NCBI GenBank assembly: GCA_031256375.1 | Contig: JAIRQX010000100.1 | Location: forward strand, 1 to 37,582 | Length of the DNA: 37,582 nucleotides | Direction of reading: 5' to 3' | Source: Deferribacteraceae bacterium | Lineage (GTDB): Bacteria > Chrysiogenota > Deferribacteres > Deferribacterales > JAISNW01 | Shown: positions 7,410-32,731 of the stretch, one piece after another | Position numbering within the stretch: the first letter of the stretch is position 1 | How the letters are laid out: every line of letters starts with the position of its first letter | Program-made: the position numbers and the translations under genes | Notes under the pieces: model-generated | What the model was told of the DNA's origin: nothing | Database searches by the model: none | Seen by the model: the letters and a program-made list of their open reading frames with translations, nothing else

Positions 7410-7517
7410 AACCAAAACCTATATACCTAATTCCATATTTTTGATTTTAATCCATTTTTTTGATATTTTCAACTGCTCTCTTACCGGAGTAATTTATTAT
7501 GTGTACGGTTATTAAGT

Positions 7518-7660
7518 ATTAGCGCAGTTCCACTTGTCATTGTGAGGAACATTGTGACGAAGCAATCCAGCTGGAGCATTTACCTGCATGGATTGCCGCG
7601 CTTTATAAAAAACATTCCGCTCGCAAAGACGGTCAATGTAATGTGGAACTGATATAGCGC
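7518..7660. repeat. dispersed palindromic repeat, copy 3 (full length)
   Basis: The left end GCAGTTCCACTTGTCATTG and right end CAATGTAATGTGGAACTG are inverted copies. The interior contains GACGAAGCAATCCAG and GGATTGCCGCGCTTTATAAA, which pair imperfectly with each other. The right end supplies the final codons and stop of the cobU gene. Confidence 0.85.
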
Positions 7661-8244
7661 TGCAAATCTCTTTTTAACCACAGCGGAGCTCCGCTCACCA
7701 TCATACAAACCTCCCCCGCAATCTCTGCTAACCGTTTGTTCATCTCAGTCAATAGCTTTAAATATTTTCTGCTGAGCGGGTCAGGGGGAATAAGCGCCAA
7801 TCCTGACTCGTTTGTAATAAGTATTATATCCGCGCAGCGTAGCGGCAGCGCGGTACAGAGATCCACCGTATATTTTACGGCATCCTTTTCATGGTGCAGA
7901 AGGTTACCCAGCCAGACAGTCAGGCAATCCACTACTATTACGCCGGAAGCTGTCAGATTGTTCAGCGTTTCCGGAAGTTGCAGAGAAACTTCCAGAGTGG
8001 TATAACTGTCGCCCCTTTCAGCCTTGTGCAAGGCAATTTTTTGACACATTTCACTGTCTATAGGTTCGGCGGTGGCAATATAGAGCTTATCAGAATACCC
8101 TGCCGCCAGTTTCAGCGCCATAGCGGTTTTACCCGAACCGTGACCGCCGGTTATAAGGGTAACCGATTTGCGCCCGGGTGGAAAAACCGTGTTTTCTCCA
8201 TCTACAGCGCGAATATTTCCTTTTTCTGTCATATAAAAGGGCAT
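7633..8244 (-). CDS. cobU: adenosylcobinamide kinase / adenosylcobinamide-phosphate guanylyltransferase
   Basis: This 203-residue enzyme phosphorylates adenosylcobinamide and then attaches GMP, a late cytoplasmic step in assembling or salvaging vitamin B12. The P-loop GGHGSGKT is at residues 33-40. The conserved H73 within MCQKIALHKAERG matches the guanylylated histidine. VDCLTVWLGNLL and LITNESGLALIPPDPLSR are family signatures. About 26 residues precede the usual CobU start, and no Shine-Dalgarno sequence is visible, so the true start could be internal. No other cobalamin gene is in the window, pointing to salvage or scattered genes. The C-terminal residues YISSTLH and the TGA are encoded by the dispersed repeat. 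It is the last gene of the mutS-containing block. Confidence 0.9.
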   Translation of the reverse strand: MPFYMTEKGNIRAVDGENTVFPPGRKSVTLITGGHGSGKTAMALKLAAGYSDKLYIATAEPIDSEMCQKIALHKAERGDSYTTLEVSLQLPETLNNLTASGVIVVDCLTVWLGNLLHHEKDAVKYTVDLCTALPLRCADIILITNESGLALIPPDPLSRKYLKLLTEMNKRLAEIAGEVCMMVSGAPLWLKRDLQRYISSTLH

Positions 8245-14299: not shown

Positions 14300-15838
14300 A
14301 TGTTTATAAAACTGTTTTTGCTTCTGGCTTTTTTTACGGTTACAATTTTCATAGGCTTTTATTTCCGCAAACGGGCAACTGATATTAACGGGTTTGTATT
14401 GGCGGGGCGTTCTGTAGGACCGTGGCTGACCGCTTTCGCTTACGGGACGTCTTATTTTTCCGCTGTGGTTTTTGTAGGGTATGCGGGGCAGTTCGGTTGG
14501 AAATTTGGTACGGCAGCCACTTGGATTGGTCTGGGAAACGCTTTTATTGGTTCACTTTTGCCGTGGGTAATACTCGGAAGGCGTACACGGCTTATGTCCC
14601 ATCATTTAAACAGCGCCACAATGCCTGAATTTTTTGGCTCACGGTTTGCTTCTAACACTATTAAAATCGGCGCGTCAATTATTATCTTCATCTTTCTTAT
14701 TCCGTACACAGCTTCGTTGTATAACGGACTTTCCCGCCTTTTCGCCATGGCTTTCGGCATAGATTTTACAGTCTGTATTGTGGTTATGGCAATTCTGACC
14801 GGATTATATGTAATTGCCGGAGGATATTTTGCGACTGCAGTCAACGACTTTATACAGGGTATTATTATGTTGGTTGGTATAACCGCGGTTATTGCTACGG
14901 TTTTAAAAAACAACGGCGGTTTTACGGAAGCTATTAACGCGCTTGCCCGCGTTGAGGACACTGCCGTGTCATCAACGCCCGGAATATTTACATCCTTTTT
15001 TGGTCCGGATCCGATAGCCCTTTTGGGTGTAATAATCCTGACATCGCTTGGTACATGGGGGCTACCGCAAATGGTTCAGAAATTTTACTCTATAAAATCA
15101 GAAAAGGCTATTTTCAAAGGTACGGTAATCTCCACAATATTCGCTACTGTTATTGCCGGCGGCTGCTATTTTCTCGGCAGTTTCGGTCGCCTTTATTCAG
15201 ATGTAATCAATGTGAAAGCAAATGGTTTTGATTCAGTTATGCCTACAATACTTTCAGGATTACCTTCGGCGCTGATCGGAATAGTCGTAATTTTAGTGCT
15301 GTCTGCGTCAATGTCCACACTCTCCGCTTTGGTTATGACTTCAGCTTCAACCTTTACACTGGATTTTTTGAAAGGCAATATTATAAAGAAAATGAATGAG
15401 AAAACTCAGCTTCTGACTGTCCGTCTATTGATTGTTGTGTTTATTTTTATCTCTTCTGTAATAGCCACTATACAATATAAGGGTGGCATTACCTTTATCG
15501 CGCAGCTTATGGGCATTTCATGGGGAGCGTTGGCGGGTTCCTTCCTCGCGCCGTTTCTATACAGTCTTTACTGGAAACGTGTGAGCAACGCTTCTGTCTG
15601 GTGCTGTTTTATTTTCAGCGCTGTTTTTATGACCCTTAATATTTTTTTCAGAGGCTTTTTTCCGCAACTTCTGCAATCACCTATTAACGCGGGGGCATTC
15701 GCTATGCTTGCAGGATTAATTATAACGCCGACCGTAAGCGCGTTTACAAAAGCGCCTGAAAAAGCTCATGTAGAATCTTGCTTCCTTTGTTATCAGGAAA
15801 TAGTTAGCGTTAAAGTCAGCGAGGATCTCGGCGGATAA
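14300..15838 (+). CDS. sodium:solute symporter family protein
   Basis: This 512-residue inner-membrane protein has about 13 hydrophobic helices, the layout of the SSS family (PutP/PanF/SglT relatives) that couples Na+ entry to solute uptake. Typical segments include LAGRSVGPWLTAFAYGTSYF, the AGGYFATAVNDFIQGI loop, and a helix around VLSASMSTLSALVMTSAS that carries the sodium-site residues in this family. The substrate cannot be inferred from sequence. A TATAAT at 14272-14277 and AGGACGG ahead of the ATG suggest its own promoter and ribosome site. It lies upstream of the ATP synthase operon in the same direction but is separated from it by a promoter. Confidence 0.85.
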   Translation: MFIKLFLLLAFFTVTIFIGFYFRKRATDINGFVLAGRSVGPWLTAFAYGTSYFSAVVFVGYAGQFGWKFGTAATWIGLGNAFIGSLLPWVILGRRTRLMSHHLNSATMPEFFGSRFASNTIKIGASIIIFIFLIPYTASLYNGLSRLFAMAFGIDFTVCIVVMAILTGLYVIAGGYFATAVNDFIQGIIMLVGITAVIATVLKNNGGFTEAINALARVEDTAVSSTPGIFTSFFGPDPIALLGVIILTSLGTWGLPQMVQKFYSIKSEKAIFKGTVISTIFATVIAGGCYFLGSFGRLYSDVINVKANGFDSVMPTILSGLPSALIGIVVILVLSASMSTLSALVMTSASTFTLDFLKGNIIKKMNEKTQLLTVRLLIVVFIFISSVIATIQYKGGITFIAQLMGISWGALAGSFLAPFLYSLYWKRVSNASVWCCFIFSAVFMTLNIFFRGFFPQLLQSPINAGAFAMLAGLIITPTVSAFTKAPEKAHVESCFLCYQEIVSVKVSEDLGG

Positions 15839-16005: not shown

Positions 16006-16428
16006 GTGGTCCATGTAGGTATAGATTATACAATTTTGTTTCAGATCGTTCAATTCCTGGTGATCGTACTAATAGTTAATTTTCTTATTGTGAAACCTAT
16101 CCGCACAACCATGGTGATACGCGAGCGGAAAACTGATTTGCTGAAAGACAGGACAAAAGCCAGCCATGCAGCTATTGAGCAGAAATCGCAGGAGTATGAC
16201 GAGAAGTTCAAAGCCACTCTTAAAGAGATCAGCGCATATCAAAACCAGCTTCGTTCTGATGCGCAGGCGCGTACTCAGGCTATGTTTGATAAGGTTAAAT
16301 CGGAAAACAGCGCGGAGCTTGCCAATTCCAAGAAGCAAATTGCTGAAGAAGCCAACGTTGCCAGAAATAACTTAAAAGCTGAAATTAGTGGAATTATGGG
16401 TCAGATTGTTCAGATGGTTACAAAATAA
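16006..16428 (+). CDS. atpF': ATP synthase F0 subunit b' (second peripheral-stalk subunit)
   Basis: This 140-residue protein has an N-terminal membrane helix (YTILFQIVQFLVIVLIVNFLI) and a long charged helix. This is the b-type layout that anchors F1 to F0. It precedes the standard b gene, so the enzyme probably has a b/b' heterodimer stalk, as in cyanobacteria, Aquificae and several deltaproteobacterial groups. GTG at 16006 is chosen because AGGAGG (15995-16000) lies just upstream. It is the first gene of the operon. The assignment as b' rather than b is by position and by the lack of an N-terminal signal-like segment. Confidence 0.85.
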   Translation: MVHVGIDYTILFQIVQFLVIVLIVNFLIVKPIRTTMVIRERKTDLLKDRTKASHAAIEQKSQEYDEKFKATLKEISAYQNQLRSDAQARTQAMFDKVKSENSAELANSKKQIAEEANVARNNLKAEISGIMGQIVQMVTK

Positions 16429-16443
16429 AGGCGGGGTGGGGTT

Positions 16444-16998
16444 GTGAGTTTTCGTTATTTTTTTTATGCGTTACCGTTACTATTAGCGCCCGCAATGGTT
16501 TTTGCCTCTGAAGAAGGACATGGCGCAAGCCTTAGCGGACTTCTTTGGCGGGTATTGGTGTTTGCGGTATTTGTCACACTGATGTGGAAAATTTTGAAAG
16601 ACCGTATTAGAGACGGACTTTCATCAAACGGTTTAAGAGTACAAAAAGAGATAGATGATGCGGAAGTCGCCTGTAAAGCGGCTGTTCAGGAGCTTGCTGA
16701 CTATACGGGGAAAATTGCGGACATGGGGAAAGAGCTTGACAATATGAAAGCCGCCGCGCGCAACGCCGCAGAAAAAGAGGCTGAGACTATGATCGCGGAC
16801 GCTGAAAAGGCGGTTGTCAAGTATAAAGAGATGGCGCGCAGAACCATCGCTGCCGAGGCTGAAAAGGCAAAAACCGACATCCGTAAAGAGGTTATGCTCA
16901 GCGCTATTGCCGAGGCGGAGAAACAGATTTTTGCAAACACCGATAATGAAACAAGACAAAAATTTATGTCAGATAATATCAGTAAGATCGGAGAGTAG
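16444..16998 (+). CDS. atpF: ATP synthase F0 subunit b
   Basis: The protein has 184 residues, starts at GTG, and has GGGGTGGGG-type ribosome-site bases just upstream. The N-terminus begins with a signal-peptide-like stretch (FYALPLLLAPAMVFAS), then a second membrane helix (LLWRVLVFAVFVTLMWKIL). A long Ala/Glu/Lys-rich helix forms the stator stalk and touches delta and alpha. The extra N-terminal signal-like segment is seen in some bacterial AtpF proteins. It lies 15 bases after b' and 3 bases before delta. Confidence 0.88.
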   Translation: MSFRYFFYALPLLLAPAMVFASEEGHGASLSGLLWRVLVFAVFVTLMWKILKDRIRDGLSSNGLRVQKEIDDAEVACKAAVQELADYTGKIADMGKELDNMKAAARNAAEKEAETMIADAEKAVVKYKEMARRTIAAEAEKAKTDIRKEVMLSAIAEAEKQIFANTDNETRQKFMSDNISKIGE

Positions 16999-17001
16999 CC
17001 T

Positions 17002-17541
17002 GTGAAAAACATGATAATTGCTTCCAGATATGCCAACGCGCTATATGAAGAGGCAAAAACGGCAGGTCTTGTTAATGAGGTTGTTCAGGATCTGCGTCAA
17101 TTAAAAGACCTTACCGAACAGAACAAAGATTTTGAGGCGTTCTTAAACAGCATTGTTATTTCAACCGCTGATAAGTTAAATGTGATTAATGCCATAGGCA
17201 AATCAGGCAAAATAAACCGTCTTACTTATGCGTTTCTTGTGGCGCTGACCAAAAATAAACGTCTGGATATTCTTTCAGAAACAGCGCTGGCAATTAACAA
17301 ACGTATAAGTGAGGAAAGGGGCGAGATGGAGGTTTATGTCAGTTATGCCTCATCAGCGGAGGATTACATCAGAACTGCTCTGATAGAACGTCTTTCCGCG
17401 TTGACCAAGAAAAAGGTGATTCTTAAAGAGTCGGTGGACAGTGCGCTTTTGGGCGGAATGCGTATATTGATAGGGAACACGCTTTATGATATGAGTGTTA
17501 AAGGGCGGCTGGAAGCTCTTAAAAATCAGATTGCAAAATAG
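17002..17541 (+). CDS. atpH: ATP synthase F1 subunit delta
   Basis: The protein has 179 residues. The N-terminal ASRYANALYEEAK motif and the C-terminal segment DSALLGGMRILIGNTLYDMSV are typical of delta/OSCP proteins, which link the top of F1 to the b stalk. The GTG at 17002 lies after GGAGAG near the end of atpF. The length is standard and there is no oddity. Confidence 0.93.
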   Translation: MKNMIIASRYANALYEEAKTAGLVNEVVQDLRQLKDLTEQNKDFEAFLNSIVISTADKLNVINAIGKSGKINRLTYAFLVALTKNKRLDILSETALAINKRISEERGEMEVYVSYASSAEDYIRTALIERLSALTKKKVILKESVDSALLGGMRILIGNTLYDMSVKGRLEALKNQIAK

Positions 17542-17567
17542 CACATATATAAGGAGAGTTACGCTTT

Positions 17568-19076
17568 ATGCAGATTAAAGCCGATGAAATCAGCCAGATT
17601 ATACGGGATCAGATCAAGAATTTTGATCAGAAAGTAGAAATGGCGGAAATAGGCACCGTGATTAGCGCGGGCGACGGTATAGCCAAAATTTACGGACTTG
17701 ATAACATTATGGCAGGGGAACTTGTGGAGTTTCCTCATGATACTTTCGGCATGGTTCTTAACCTTGAGGAAGAGAGTGTTGGCGTAGTTATTCTTGGTAA
17801 TTACGACCACATCAAAGAGGGGGAAACGGTTAAACGCACAGGGCGCATAGCGTCTGTTCCCGTAGGCGAAGCTCTTATAGGGCGTGTGGTTTCGCCTCTC
17901 GGTGAACCGATTGACGGTAAAGGACCTATAAAAGCCGCAAAGATGGATGTTATTGAAAAGATCGCTCCCGGTATCCTTTCCCGCCGCTCTGTTTATGAGC
18001 CGGTTCAGACAGGTATCAAGGCTATTGACTCTATGATTCCGATTGGGCGCGGACAGAGGGAGCTTATAATAGGAGACCGCCAGACCGGAAAAACTGCCGT
18101 TGCGGTGGACACAATTATTAATCAGAAAGGTCAGAACATGATCTGTGTTTACGTTGCGGTCGGACAGAAAAGATCCACTGTTGCCAACGTAGTGGAAACA
18201 CTTGAAAAATACGGGGCTATGGAATATACGATAGTTGTGGCGGCTACAGCCAGCGAATCTGCGCCATTACAGTTTATCGCGCCGCTGGCGGGTTGTACGA
18301 TGGGGGAATATTTCCGTGACAACGGGAAGCACGCCCTGCTCATATACGATGATCTTTCAAAACATGCTACTGCATACAGGCAGATGTCCCTTCTGCTCCG
18401 CCGCCCGCCCGGCAGGGAGGCTTATCCGGGTGATGTATTTTATCTTCATTCACGCCTTCTTGAGCGCGCCGCTAAATTAAGTGACGAGTTGGGCGGGGGT
18501 TCGCTTACTGCCCTTCCTATAATTGAAACTCAGGCGGGTGACGTATCTGCGTACATACCTACAAACGTTATCTCCATTACTGACGGACAGATATTCCTTG
18601 AAACAGACCTCTTTTTCAGCGGTTTCCGCCCGGCGGTAAATGCTGGGATATCTGTTTCGCGGGTGGGTGGTAGCGCGCAAATTAAAGCTATGAAGCAGGT
18701 TTCAGGGCGGTTGCGTCTTGATCTTGCCCAATACCGCGCTATGGCGGCTTTTGCTCAGTTCGGGAGTGATCTGGATTCTGCCACACAGGCGCAGCTTACA
18801 AGGGGTAGCCGTCTTATGGAACTTCTTAAGCAGCCTCAATATAAACCCGTGTCTGTCCATAATCAGATTGCCATACTTTTTGCCGGTATCAACGGATTCT
18901 TAGATGATGTACCGCTTAAATATATTGCCAAATTTGAGCAGGAATATATCGGCTATCTGACAGCAAACAAACCGGATATATTGTCAGAGATTACAAATAA
19001 GAAGGCTATTTCAGACGAGCTTGCCGCAAAGATGAAATCAGCGTTGACTGAATTTAAAAAACAGTTTGCAGAGTAA
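17568..19076 (+). CDS. atpA: ATP synthase F1 subunit alpha
   Basis: This 502-residue protein is the non-catalytic nucleotide-binding subunit of the alpha3beta3 head. The Walker A motif GDRQTGKT is near residues 169-176. [20 protein letters not shown] and the [18 protein letters not shown] segment are diagnostic of alpha. The length is exactly typical. AAGGAG precedes the ATG at a good distance. The enzyme makes or uses ATP with the proton or sodium gradient across the inner membrane. Confidence 0.98.
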
Positions 19077-19110: not shown

Positions 19111-19965
19111 ATGGCCGGAACAAAAAATATTAAGCGCCAGATAGTTTCAGTAAAGAATACGCAGAAGGTCACTAAGGCAATGAAGATGGTTTCCGCTGCG
19201 AAAATGAGGCGCGCAAACGAGGCGATGCAAGCGACAAACCCTTATGCGGCGAAGATTAAAGAAGTTGCTGTACACCTTTCGGGACTCAGCGGTGATAATG
19301 AACCCCATCCTTATATGATTGCGAGGAAAGAGGTAAAAAATATAGCTCTCCTTCTTATCAACTCAGACAGAGGACTTTGCGGGGCTTTTAACTCTAACGT
19401 TGTTCGTATGGCTACCAGATTTAGAGAGGAACATCCCGGAAAAACGCTGAAGTTATTTATAGTCGGAAAGAACGCTTACGATTATTTTAAAAAACAACCG
19501 CATGAAATTATTGAGAAATGGACGTCTCTGGGCGGCAAAATATCGTATGATACGGCTAAACGTATAAGTGACAGCGTAACGGACTCTTTTATGAAAGAGA
19601 AGTATGATGAGCTTTATCTGATATATAACGAATTCCGCTCTGTGTCGGTTCAGTATCCTAAGACAGAAAAGATTATGCCGTTATCATTTGAGGGGAGTGA
19701 AACTCAGAGGGATTACCTTTTTGAACCGAAGCCTGCGGAACTTCTGGCGCAAATATTACCGCGGTATGTAACATTTTCCATATATCATAAGTTGCTGGAA
19801 TCAGCGGCGGGAGAACACGGAGCGCGGATGGTGGCAATGGATAACGCAACCCGCAGCGCTGACGATATGGTAAAAAAACTTACACTTAACTATAACAAGG
19901 CGCGTCAGGCTGCGATTACAAAAGATTTGCTGGATATAGTAAACGGCGCGGAAGCGTTGAAGTAG
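19111..19965 (+). CDS. atpG: ATP synthase F1 subunit gamma
   Basis: This 284-residue protein is the central rotor shaft. The N-terminal coiled-coil helix contains IKRQIVSVKNTQKVTKAMKM. The Rossmann-like middle contains LLINSDRGLCGAFNSN. The C-terminal helix has GARMVAMDNATRSADDMV, a strongly conserved gamma signature. The length is normal. After its stop there is an unusual 511-base interval before atpD, occupied by an unrelated gene. Confidence 0.97.
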   Translation: MAGTKNIKRQIVSVKNTQKVTKAMKMVSAAKMRRANEAMQATNPYAAKIKEVAVHLSGLSGDNEPHPYMIARKEVKNIALLLINSDRGLCGAFNSNVVRMATRFREEHPGKTLKLFIVGKNAYDYFKKQPHEIIEKWTSLGGKISYDTAKRISDSVTDSFMKEKYDELYLIYNEFRSVSVQYPKTEKIMPLSFEGSETQRDYLFEPKPAELLAQILPRYVTFSIYHKLLESAAGEHGARMVAMDNATRSADDMVKKLTLNYNKARQAAITKDLLDIVNGAEALK

Positions 19966-20008: not shown

Positions 20009-20440
20009 ATGGGTTACTTTTATACGTTAAGGAAAGTTTTAATTGTGAAGATGATTCTGACATACTTATTTTTGATTGGGTGTGGCGATGATTCATCGGC
20101 TGAAACTTCTGTAGGAAGTGATTCCGGAGCTGTTACCATTGATTGTATTCAGGAGGATATTCAAGATGAGGATTCTCAGTCTCGCTCTAGCTCATGTGTT
20201 GCTTATTTCATCAATGATAGTCCTAACTTGATAAATATAAGTTATCCTAGAACGGCAGACTATGATTCGACATCTGAATTACAGACCATTGTCTGTGGCT
20301 ATTACGCTTGCGGGGGAGCTTTATACAGTGGAACAACTACTAAAATGACCTTTCACTATGGTCGTAGTAAAACTATTAATTTTACTGCTACAGGTATGGT
20401 AAGTTACAGAATAAAGTTAGGGGAAGTTACTTTTTACTGA
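20009..20440 (+). CDS. predicted lipoprotein inserted between atpG and atpD, unknown function
   Basis: This is a 143-residue frame with no recognised family. The N-terminus is a lipoprotein signal: basic residues (R8, K9, K14), hydrophobic core ILTYLFL and lipobox LIGC with Cys25. The mature part is Ser/Asp/Glu-rich and holds four cysteines (46, 63, 96, 101), enough for two disulfides. The end is Tyr/Thr-rich and strand-like. It lies 43 bases after atpG and 36 before atpD, where most bacteria have no gene. A second start, GTG at 20045, follows AAGGAAAG and would leave a shorter signal. Codon use looks more AT-rich than the neighbouring atp genes. It is co-transcribed by position; a role in ATP synthase is not implied. 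Confidence 0.6.
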   Translation: MGYFYTLRKVLIVKMILTYLFLIGCGDDSSAETSVGSDSGAVTIDCIQEDIQDEDSQSRSSSCVAYFINDSPNLINISYPRTADYDSTSELQTIVCGYYACGGALYSGTTTKMTFHYGRSKTINFTATGMVSYRIKLGEVTFY

Positions 20441-20476
20441 GATTATAGATAAAATTTTTTATTAGGAGATACATAG

Positions 20477-21883
<1,407 letters not shown>

Positions 21884-21884
21884 T

Positions 21885-22301
21885 ATGTCTGGAAAGCTTT
21901 TTTTGGAGCTTGTTTCACCCGAACGTCTGCTTGTGAGATCTGAAGTTGATGAGGTGTACGCTCCGGGTTCTGAAGGGGATCTCGGTATATTACCGGAGCA
22001 CACGGCGTTTATCTGTTCTTTGCGTTCGGGGGAATTTAGGTTTTATATAGGCGATAATGTGGAGTATGTTGCGCTGGACGGCGGTTTTATGGAAGTGGTT
22101 GATAATAAAGTGACGGTACTAGCGGATGGCGCTGAACTCGGCAGGGAAATCAATGTAAGCGAAGTTTTACGCCGCAAACTTGTAGCCGAAAAAGATGTTG
22201 AAGATGCCCGCCAGAAAGACAACATTGATTTTACAACTGCTGAAGCAAAACTGATGAAGGAAATTATCAGAATTAACGTTGCCGGCAAATATAAAACGTA
22301 A
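21885..22301 (+). CDS. atpC: ATP synthase F1 subunit epsilon
   Basis: The protein has 138 residues. An N-terminal beta-sandwich (LELVSPERLLVRSEVDEVYA, GDLGILPEHTAF) and a C-terminal pair of helices match epsilon, which couples the shaft to the c ring and can inhibit ATP hydrolysis. It is the last gene of the operon and a hairpin follows 30 bases later. The genes for subunits a and c are not in the window. Confidence 0.95.
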   Translation: MSGKLFLELVSPERLLVRSEVDEVYAPGSEGDLGILPEHTAFICSLRSGEFRFYIGDNVEYVALDGGFMEVVDNKVTVLADGAELGREINVSEVLRRKLVAEKDVEDARQKDNIDFTTAEAKLMKEIIRINVAGKYKT

Positions 22302-25401: not shown

Positions 25402-25417
25402 AACCTACTCTCCTAAT

Positions 25418-25554
25418 TATAGCAGTTCCGCATAACATTTACCATCTTTGCGGTCGAAATGTTTATTATGAAGCGCGGCAATCCATGTATGTAAATGCTC
25501 CAAATGGATCGCTGCGTCACAGCGTTGCTTGCAATGATAAGCGGAACTGCCATA
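25418..25554. repeat. dispersed palindromic repeat, copy 4 (full length)
   Basis: The ends are TATAGCAGTTCCGC and GCGGAACTGCCATA. The interior has ATGAAGCGCGGCAATCCATG and ATGGATCGCTGCGTCACAGC, which pair. It sits immediately upstream of psd, in its probable promoter region. Confidence 0.85.
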
Positions 25555-25727
25555 GTATTTTAAAAATGAAATATTAAAAACATACGCCTCCGTTACGATA
25601 ATCAGATTGTTTAATGATTGCAAGCAAAAGAATGACGAAAAGATAAAATTAATATCTATTGATAGAATCGCAATTCAGCATACATTTATTGTTAAGAGTT
25701 GCAGTATATATTATTTTGGAGTGTACA

Positions 25728-25895: not shown

Positions 25896-25902
25896 AGCAT
25901 TT

Positions 25903-26039
25903 TATAACAGTTCCGCATTACACAGACCGTATTTACGAGCGGAATGTTTTTTATGAAGCGCGGCAATCCATGCAGGTAAAAGCCCAAACTGGATTGCTTC
26001 GTCACTGCGTTCCTCGCAATGACGAGTGGAACTGCTATA
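25903..26039. repeat. dispersed palindromic repeat, copy 5 (full length)
   Basis: The ends are TATAACAGTTCCGC and GAGTGGAACTGCTATA. The interior has TGAAGCGCGGCAATCCATGC and GGATTGCTTCGTCACTGCG, which pair. It lies downstream of the DnaQ-like gene. Confidence 0.88.
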
Positions 26040-26122
26040 CTGAACCACCCTCCTGTGCGTCAGAAAATGATATAAAAGGTTAAATATTTTGTCCAATCTC
26101 ATGAAATGCGCTCCCGATTAAA

Positions 26123-26678: not shown

Positions 26679-26693
26679 GACAAAATATGTCGC
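26679..26693. repeat. 15-base dyad, left member of an inverted pair
   Basis: GACAAAATATGTCGC at 26679-26693 is repeated in perfect inverted orientation at 26868-26882. Each member is itself a near palindrome (CGACA/TGTCG arms). The pair brackets repeat copy 6 and lies upstream of the DnaQ-like gene. Confidence 0.55.
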
Positions 26694-26695
26694 AA

Positions 26696-26832
26696 TATAG
26701 CAGTTCCACTCGTCTTTGCGAGGAACGCAGTGACGAAGCAATCCAGTGTAAGCCTTTATTTGCATGGATTGCCACGCTTCATAAAAAACATTCCGCTCGC
26801 AAAGACGGTTAATGTATTATGGAACTGCTATA
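26696..26832. repeat. dispersed palindromic repeat, copy 6 (full length, best preserved)
   Basis: The ends TATAGCAGTTCCA and TGGAACTGCTATA are perfect inverted copies of 13 bases. The arms GTCTTTGCGAGGAACGCAGT and ACATTCCGCTCGCAAAGACG continue the pairing. CGAAGCAATCCA pairs with TGGATTGCCACGCTTC near the loop. The element could form a hairpin along almost its whole length. Confidence 0.9.
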
Positions 26833-26867
26833 TTGAAAAAATTTTTTATTTAATTTTATTCTTTATA

Positions 26868-32663: not shown

Positions 32664-32731
32664 TACAGCAGTTCCTTAATTGCATTGACCGTCTTTGCGA
32701 GCGAGATGTTTTTTATGAAGCGCGGGAACTG
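32664..32731. repeat. dispersed palindromic repeat, internally deleted copy
   Basis: TACAGCAGTTCC, ATTGACCGTCTTTGCGAGCG and TTTTTTATGAAGCGCGG match the full copies. The second half is lost and GGGAACTG remains at the end. It lies 4 bases downstream of the nifJ stop codon. Confidence 0.7.

What the first reader, a model, noticed from the sequence alone, without database searches (positions are those of the whole stretch)
20009..20440. Unrelated lipoprotein gene inside the ATP synthase operon
The order gamma-beta is nearly universal with no gene between. Here a 143-codon lipoprotein with a clear lipobox and four further cysteines sits between them, with short gaps on both sides and lower-GC composition. 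It is either a recent insertion tolerated by the operon or a lineage-specific exported partner made in step with ATP synthase.
Basis: partly seen in the sequence, partly recalled or inferred. Interest (0 to 1): 0.65.

Follow-up and report, generated by a model that had tools for sequence, protein, structure and literature searches.

The report
Orphan lipoprotein gene in ATP-synthase operon
In one insect-gut-type Deferribacterota genome, a small predicted surface-anchored protein with no detectable relative sits between two ATP-synthase genes; it looks like a recent, tolerated insertion of an orphan gene rather than a new part of the ATP synthase.

Summary
An intact 143-codon frame (20009-20440; likelier start GTG 20045) with a lipobox (LIG|C) and four further Cys lies between atpG and atpD, with no promoter- or terminator-like site. 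The open frame exceeds all 20,000 Markov-simulated sequences, and codon statistics are gene-like only in that frame. Composition is unusual (GC 37%, GC3 31%, about the 5th-8th percentile of sampled genes). The gene is single-copy, and no relative was found in any library or in ~430 genomes searched. All four available family relatives (Deferribacterota insect-gut clade) have 11-51 nt at this spot against 511 nt here, so the insertion arose on this lineage. Its right border keeps about 36 nt of the ancestral atpD leader with its ribosome-binding site, so atpD translation should survive. The interval is not inviolate: two relatives carry ~390 nt of repeat there, a Marinimicrobia genome carries a GIY-YIG plus 23S-IVP pair, and 25 of 77 scored AtpG loci do not have the atpG-atpD order. 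Best reading: a lineage-specific orphan lipoprotein gene inserted in a tolerant gap and read out with the operon, with an envelope role unrelated to ATP synthase. A dedicated partner is not excluded, but nothing supports it, and topology forbids contact with F1.

The parts
19111..19965 (+). atpG, F1 gamma subunit (284 aa)
   Evidence: PF00231, 330 bits, only match in the genome
20009..20440 (+). orphan predicted lipoprotein ORF, 143 aa from ATG; 131 aa from GTG 20045
   Evidence: ORF list and sequence; stop-free test; codon statistics
20030..20036 (+). AGGAAAG, probable ribosome-binding site for the GTG start at 20045
   Evidence: read from sequence; inferred
20045..20083 (+). signal peptide and lipobox (h-region ILTYLF, LIG|C), if translation starts at GTG 20045; lipidated Cys codon 20081-20083
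   Evidence: read from sequence; AlphaFold2 shows one N-terminal helix, residues 3-23 of the ATG form, pLDDT about 73
20441..20476 (+). atpD leader with AGGAG site, alignable to the relative G002/L059
   Evidence: local alignment
20477..21883 (+). atpD, F1 beta subunit (468 aa)
   Evidence: 76-92% identity to relatives
16006..19076 (+). upstream atp genes: b', b, delta, alpha
   Evidence: PF00430 on 16006-16425; the others by order and sequence
21885..22301 (+). atpC, F1 epsilon subunit
   Evidence: PF02823, PF00401

Best explanation
A lineage-specific orphan gene for a small secreted lipoprotein was inserted, as about 460 nt, into the atpG-atpD gap of this Deferribacterota lineage and is carried as a passenger of the ATP-synthase operon. 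It is transcribed by read-through from the operon promoter, translated from its own start (probably GTG 20045), exported by Sec, lipidated on Cys25 (ATG numbering) by the standard Lgt/LspA pathway, and displayed as a small beta-rich, Cys-containing domain on the periplasmic or outer side of the envelope. Its job there is not tied to ATP synthase. SHOWN: the open frame, the codon signal, absence from relatives, single copy, and the preserved atpD leader. INFERRED: read-through, lipidation, beta-rich fold, independence from ATP synthase.
For: Gap 511 nt here against 51, 24, 11 and 14 nt in the four family relatives, and 10-101 nt in nearly all other Deferribacterales measured. No match in own-genome DNA outside the locus above chance, nor in the five genomes of the family, nor in 385 relatives at E<=0.001; none in Pfam, PHROGs, PDB, phages, plasmids, or the GTDB and IMG/VR pattern scans. 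The frame is coding-like with low GC/GC3. No promoter- or terminator-like site in the interval. About 36 nt of ancestral atpD leader kept. Other genomes carry unrelated material at the same point.
Against: No RNA or protein data. No second genome of the same genus is held, so persistence and purifying selection (dN/dS) cannot be tested. No donor, target-site duplication or mobile-element ends were found, so how it got there is unknown; de novo origin is not excluded. Its codon score is weak (3rd percentile of genes).
Confidence: 0.7

Rival explanations
1. A dedicated envelope partner of ATP synthase (assembly or anchoring of Fo, or local regulation) whose synthesis is matched to the F1 subunits by its place in the operon.
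For: Position in the operon, same strand, short gaps, intact frame.
Against: Absent from every other Deferribacterota genome searched, including four of the same family, which have ordinary atp operons. A lipoprotein faces away from F1. The genome's F1 set is otherwise standard.
Confidence: 0.1
2. Not a working gene: a decaying or fortuitous open frame in inserted filler DNA, with atpD merely re-using its old leader.
For: Weak codon score, low GC, no homologs; relatives G021 and G029 carry non-coding repeat filler of ~390 nt at the same spot.
Against: A 145-codon stop-free stretch not reached in 20,000 simulations; codon signal confined to that frame; signal peptide, lipobox and a well-placed SD together.
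Confidence: 0.12
3. Assembly chimera of the metagenome bin.
For: The genome is in 128 contigs and the relatives are MAGs or SAGs; composition differs locally.
Against: Insert lies inside a 37.6 kb contig, begins and ends cleanly between two complete genes, and keeps the atpD leader.
Confidence: 0.05
4. A divergent relative of the YgiT/MqsA-type zinc-finger antitoxins fused to a signal peptide.
For: NCBIfam TIGR03831 at E=0.0048, residues 99-122; ten shuffled or reversed controls gave nothing below 0.2.
Against: 17.1 bits is below the curated 20.2; only model positions 2-25 of 46 match; the second CxxC is missing and the first Cys pair is C-x4-C; no toxin partner gene beside it; exported proteins are not DNA-binding antitoxins.
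Confidence: 0.03

Closest known systems
Small orphan (taxonomically restricted) lipoproteins of Gram-negative bacteria
   Same: Sec/SpII-type signal, lipobox, short low-complexity linker (DDSSAETSVGSDSG), small Cys-containing domain, no homologs
   Different: Located inside a core housekeeping operon rather than alone or near mobile genes
Marinimicrobia atpG-[GIY-YIG, 23S rRNA IVP protein]-atpD (L126)
   Same: Foreign material of several hundred nt between atpG and atpD on the same strand
   Different: Cargo is of the mobile or intervening-sequence type with Pfam matches; unrelated to the lipoprotein
Deferribacterales G021/G029 atpG-[~390 nt repeat]-atpD
   Same: Enlarged gap at the same point in the same order of bacteria
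   Different: No gene seen; made of palindromic repeat plus a duplicated atpG 3' end
Extra gene between gamma and beta in some purple-bacteria atp operons (recalled from early Rhodopseudomonas blastica work; not found in the searched library)
   Same: An accessory gene in the same interval
   Different: Not tested here; a lead from memory only (searches did not retrieve it)

Membership tests
Bacterial lipoprotein (SpII substrate) | Basic n-region, hydrophobic h-region, lipobox [LVI][ASTVI][GAS]C in the first ~30 residues | tested here: met
   MGYFYTLRKVLIVKMILTYLFLIG|C; lipobox L-I-G-C at residues 22-25. Sequence pattern only; no dedicated predictor available.
Bacterial lipoprotein (SpII substrate) | Lipidated and membrane-anchored in the cell | not testable with these tools
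   needs labelling or proteomics
ATP synthase accessory or assembly factor | Recognisable member of a known accessory family | tested here: not met
   no match in Pfam, and none over threshold in NCBIfam
ATP synthase accessory or assembly factor | Conserved association with atp genes across genomes | tested here: not met
   absent from all relatives; gap 10-101 nt in nearly all
YgiT/MqsA-type zinc finger | Score above the curated cut-off and two CxxC motifs | tested here: not met
   17.1 against 20.2 bits; second CxxC absent
Mobile element cargo | Terminal repeats, target duplication, or copies elsewhere in the genome | tested here: not met
   no convincing flanking repeats; single copy

The most novel reading that the evidence does not exclude
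A genus-specific periplasmic lipoprotein has been recruited as a dosage-matched partner of Fo in an insect-gut-clade bacterium, a kind of ATP-synthase accessory not known before.
Probability: 0.05. Interest if true: 0.65.

Novelty: new member of a known kind. Interest (0 to 1): 0.2.

Why it matters
It is a clean example of an orphan gene gaining expression by landing inside a highly expressed, otherwise conserved operon without breaking it, and it shows that the atpG-atpD gap tolerates cargo. Beyond that it is of local interest. If it proved to be a true ATP-synthase partner it would be surprising, but the evidence does not point there.

Tried and rejected
Homology by Pfam, PHROGs, NCBIfam, PDB sequences, phage and plasmid tblastn, GTDB and IMG/VR pattern scans: nothing usable. 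Weak N-terminal matches in other Deferribacterales and other phyla (E 0.004-0.9) are mostly confined to the signal peptide and linker region and were rejected as homology. The phylum of one weak hit (G058) gave nothing. AlphaFold2 on the whole protein and on residues 41-143 gave pLDDT 41 and 40, too poor for a fold search; only 'mostly strands' is taken from it, loosely. Rfam found no RNA in the interval, and the ORF-end/atpD-leader region (20395-20500) folds no better than shuffles. YgiT finger considered and rejected.

Full report
OBSERVATION. AtpG is the only match to its family in the genome. The interval between the two atp genes is 511 nt. A 145-codon stop-free stretch in such DNA was not reached in 20,000 first-order Markov simulations, and codon statistics trained on the longer of about 235 frames from 272 kb of the same genome are positive only in this frame. 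The score is at the low end for genes of this genome, and GC (0.371) and GC3 (0.308) are at about the 8th and 5th percentile, so the 'lower GC' remark is right. The lipobox and four more cysteines are there. I would move the start: AGGAAAG (20030-20036) lies upstream of an in-frame GTG at 20045, giving a 131-aa precursor; this is an inference from the sequence.

WHOSE GENOME. The genome (G000, 1.95 Mb, 128 contigs, 96% complete) has four relatives in its family. [quoted passage not shown] MS499-41 is 'Candidatus Termitispirillum reticulitermitis', and PMC12887300 places it, with MAGs from higher-termite guts, in the insect-gut clade Termitispirillaceae. The window is therefore most likely from an insect-gut Deferribacterota; this assignment is inferred from kinship, since the host record itself was not seen.

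COMPARISON OF THE INTERVAL. The four family relatives have 51, 24, 11 and 14 nt between atpG and atpD. Other Deferribacterales have 10-101 nt, except two genomes of one genus with 391-393 nt of palindromic repeat and a duplicated atpG 3' end. Among 52 co-linear loci in a wider set, gaps were 6-156 nt, with one of 881 nt (a Marinimicrobia genome) holding a GIY-YIG protein and a 23S rRNA intervening-sequence protein. In 25 of 77 scored loci atpD is not downstream of atpG, in line with the split units described in PMC5709465. So gamma-beta adjacency is conserved here but not near-universal, and the gap tolerates cargo. In the window about 36 nt before atpD align with the leader of the nearest relative, AGGAG site included, so the insertion left the atpD start signal intact. 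No direct repeats or inverted ends mark the insert convincingly, and the DNA has no second copy in the genome.

WHAT THE PROTEIN IS. No relative was found: Pfam, PHROGs, PDB, phages, plasmids; pattern scans of 84,980 species genomes and of viral contigs, which find close relatives only; 385 genomes ordered by kinship; and the phylum of one weak hit. One sub-threshold NCBIfam match (YgiT finger, 17.1 bits against a cut-off of 20.2) stands out from shuffled controls but lacks half of the domain and its second CxxC, so I do not accept it. AlphaFold2 without relatives gives an N-terminal helix (signal peptide) and mostly strands at very low confidence.

MECHANISM. No promoter-like or terminator-like site of the simple type scanned lies in the interval, so the gene is most simply read through from the atp promoter. 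It would be translated, exported, lipidated at Cys25 and held on the periplasmic or outer face. F1 (gamma, beta) is cytoplasmic, so a direct partnership with the neighbours' products is ruled out by topology; only periplasmic loops of Fo could be touched (established knowledge of F-type ATP synthase). With no conservation of the link, the position is best read as a way of obtaining expression, not as a sign of shared function.

VERDICT. A real, probably expressed, genus-level orphan lipoprotein gene tolerated in the atpG-atpD gap. New member of a known kind (orphan gene inserted in a conserved operon); modest interest.

Noticed in passing
7486-7677, 25417-25588, 25902-26042, 26693-26853, 32679-32728 and others: Dispersed repeat of about 140-170 nt in several copies and both orientations (77-90% alike), containing 'GCTCGCAAAGACGGTCAATG' and giving the spurious reading 'CHCEERSDEAIQ'; looks like a small interspersed, MITE-like element.
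   Followed up: no
L126:4138-4619 (Marinimicrobia): GIY-YIG domain protein and a 23S rRNA intervening-sequence protein inserted between atpG and atpD.
   Followed up: partly
L033 and L040 (G029, G021), atpG-atpD gap: The gap holds palindromic repeats and a second copy of the last ~40 nt of atpG with its stop, a partial tandem duplication.
   Followed up: partly
14300-15838: Sodium:solute symporter family gene (PF00474) directly upstream of the b'-b-delta-alpha-gamma-beta-epsilon cluster; Fo a and c genes are not seen in the stretch listed.
   Followed up: no
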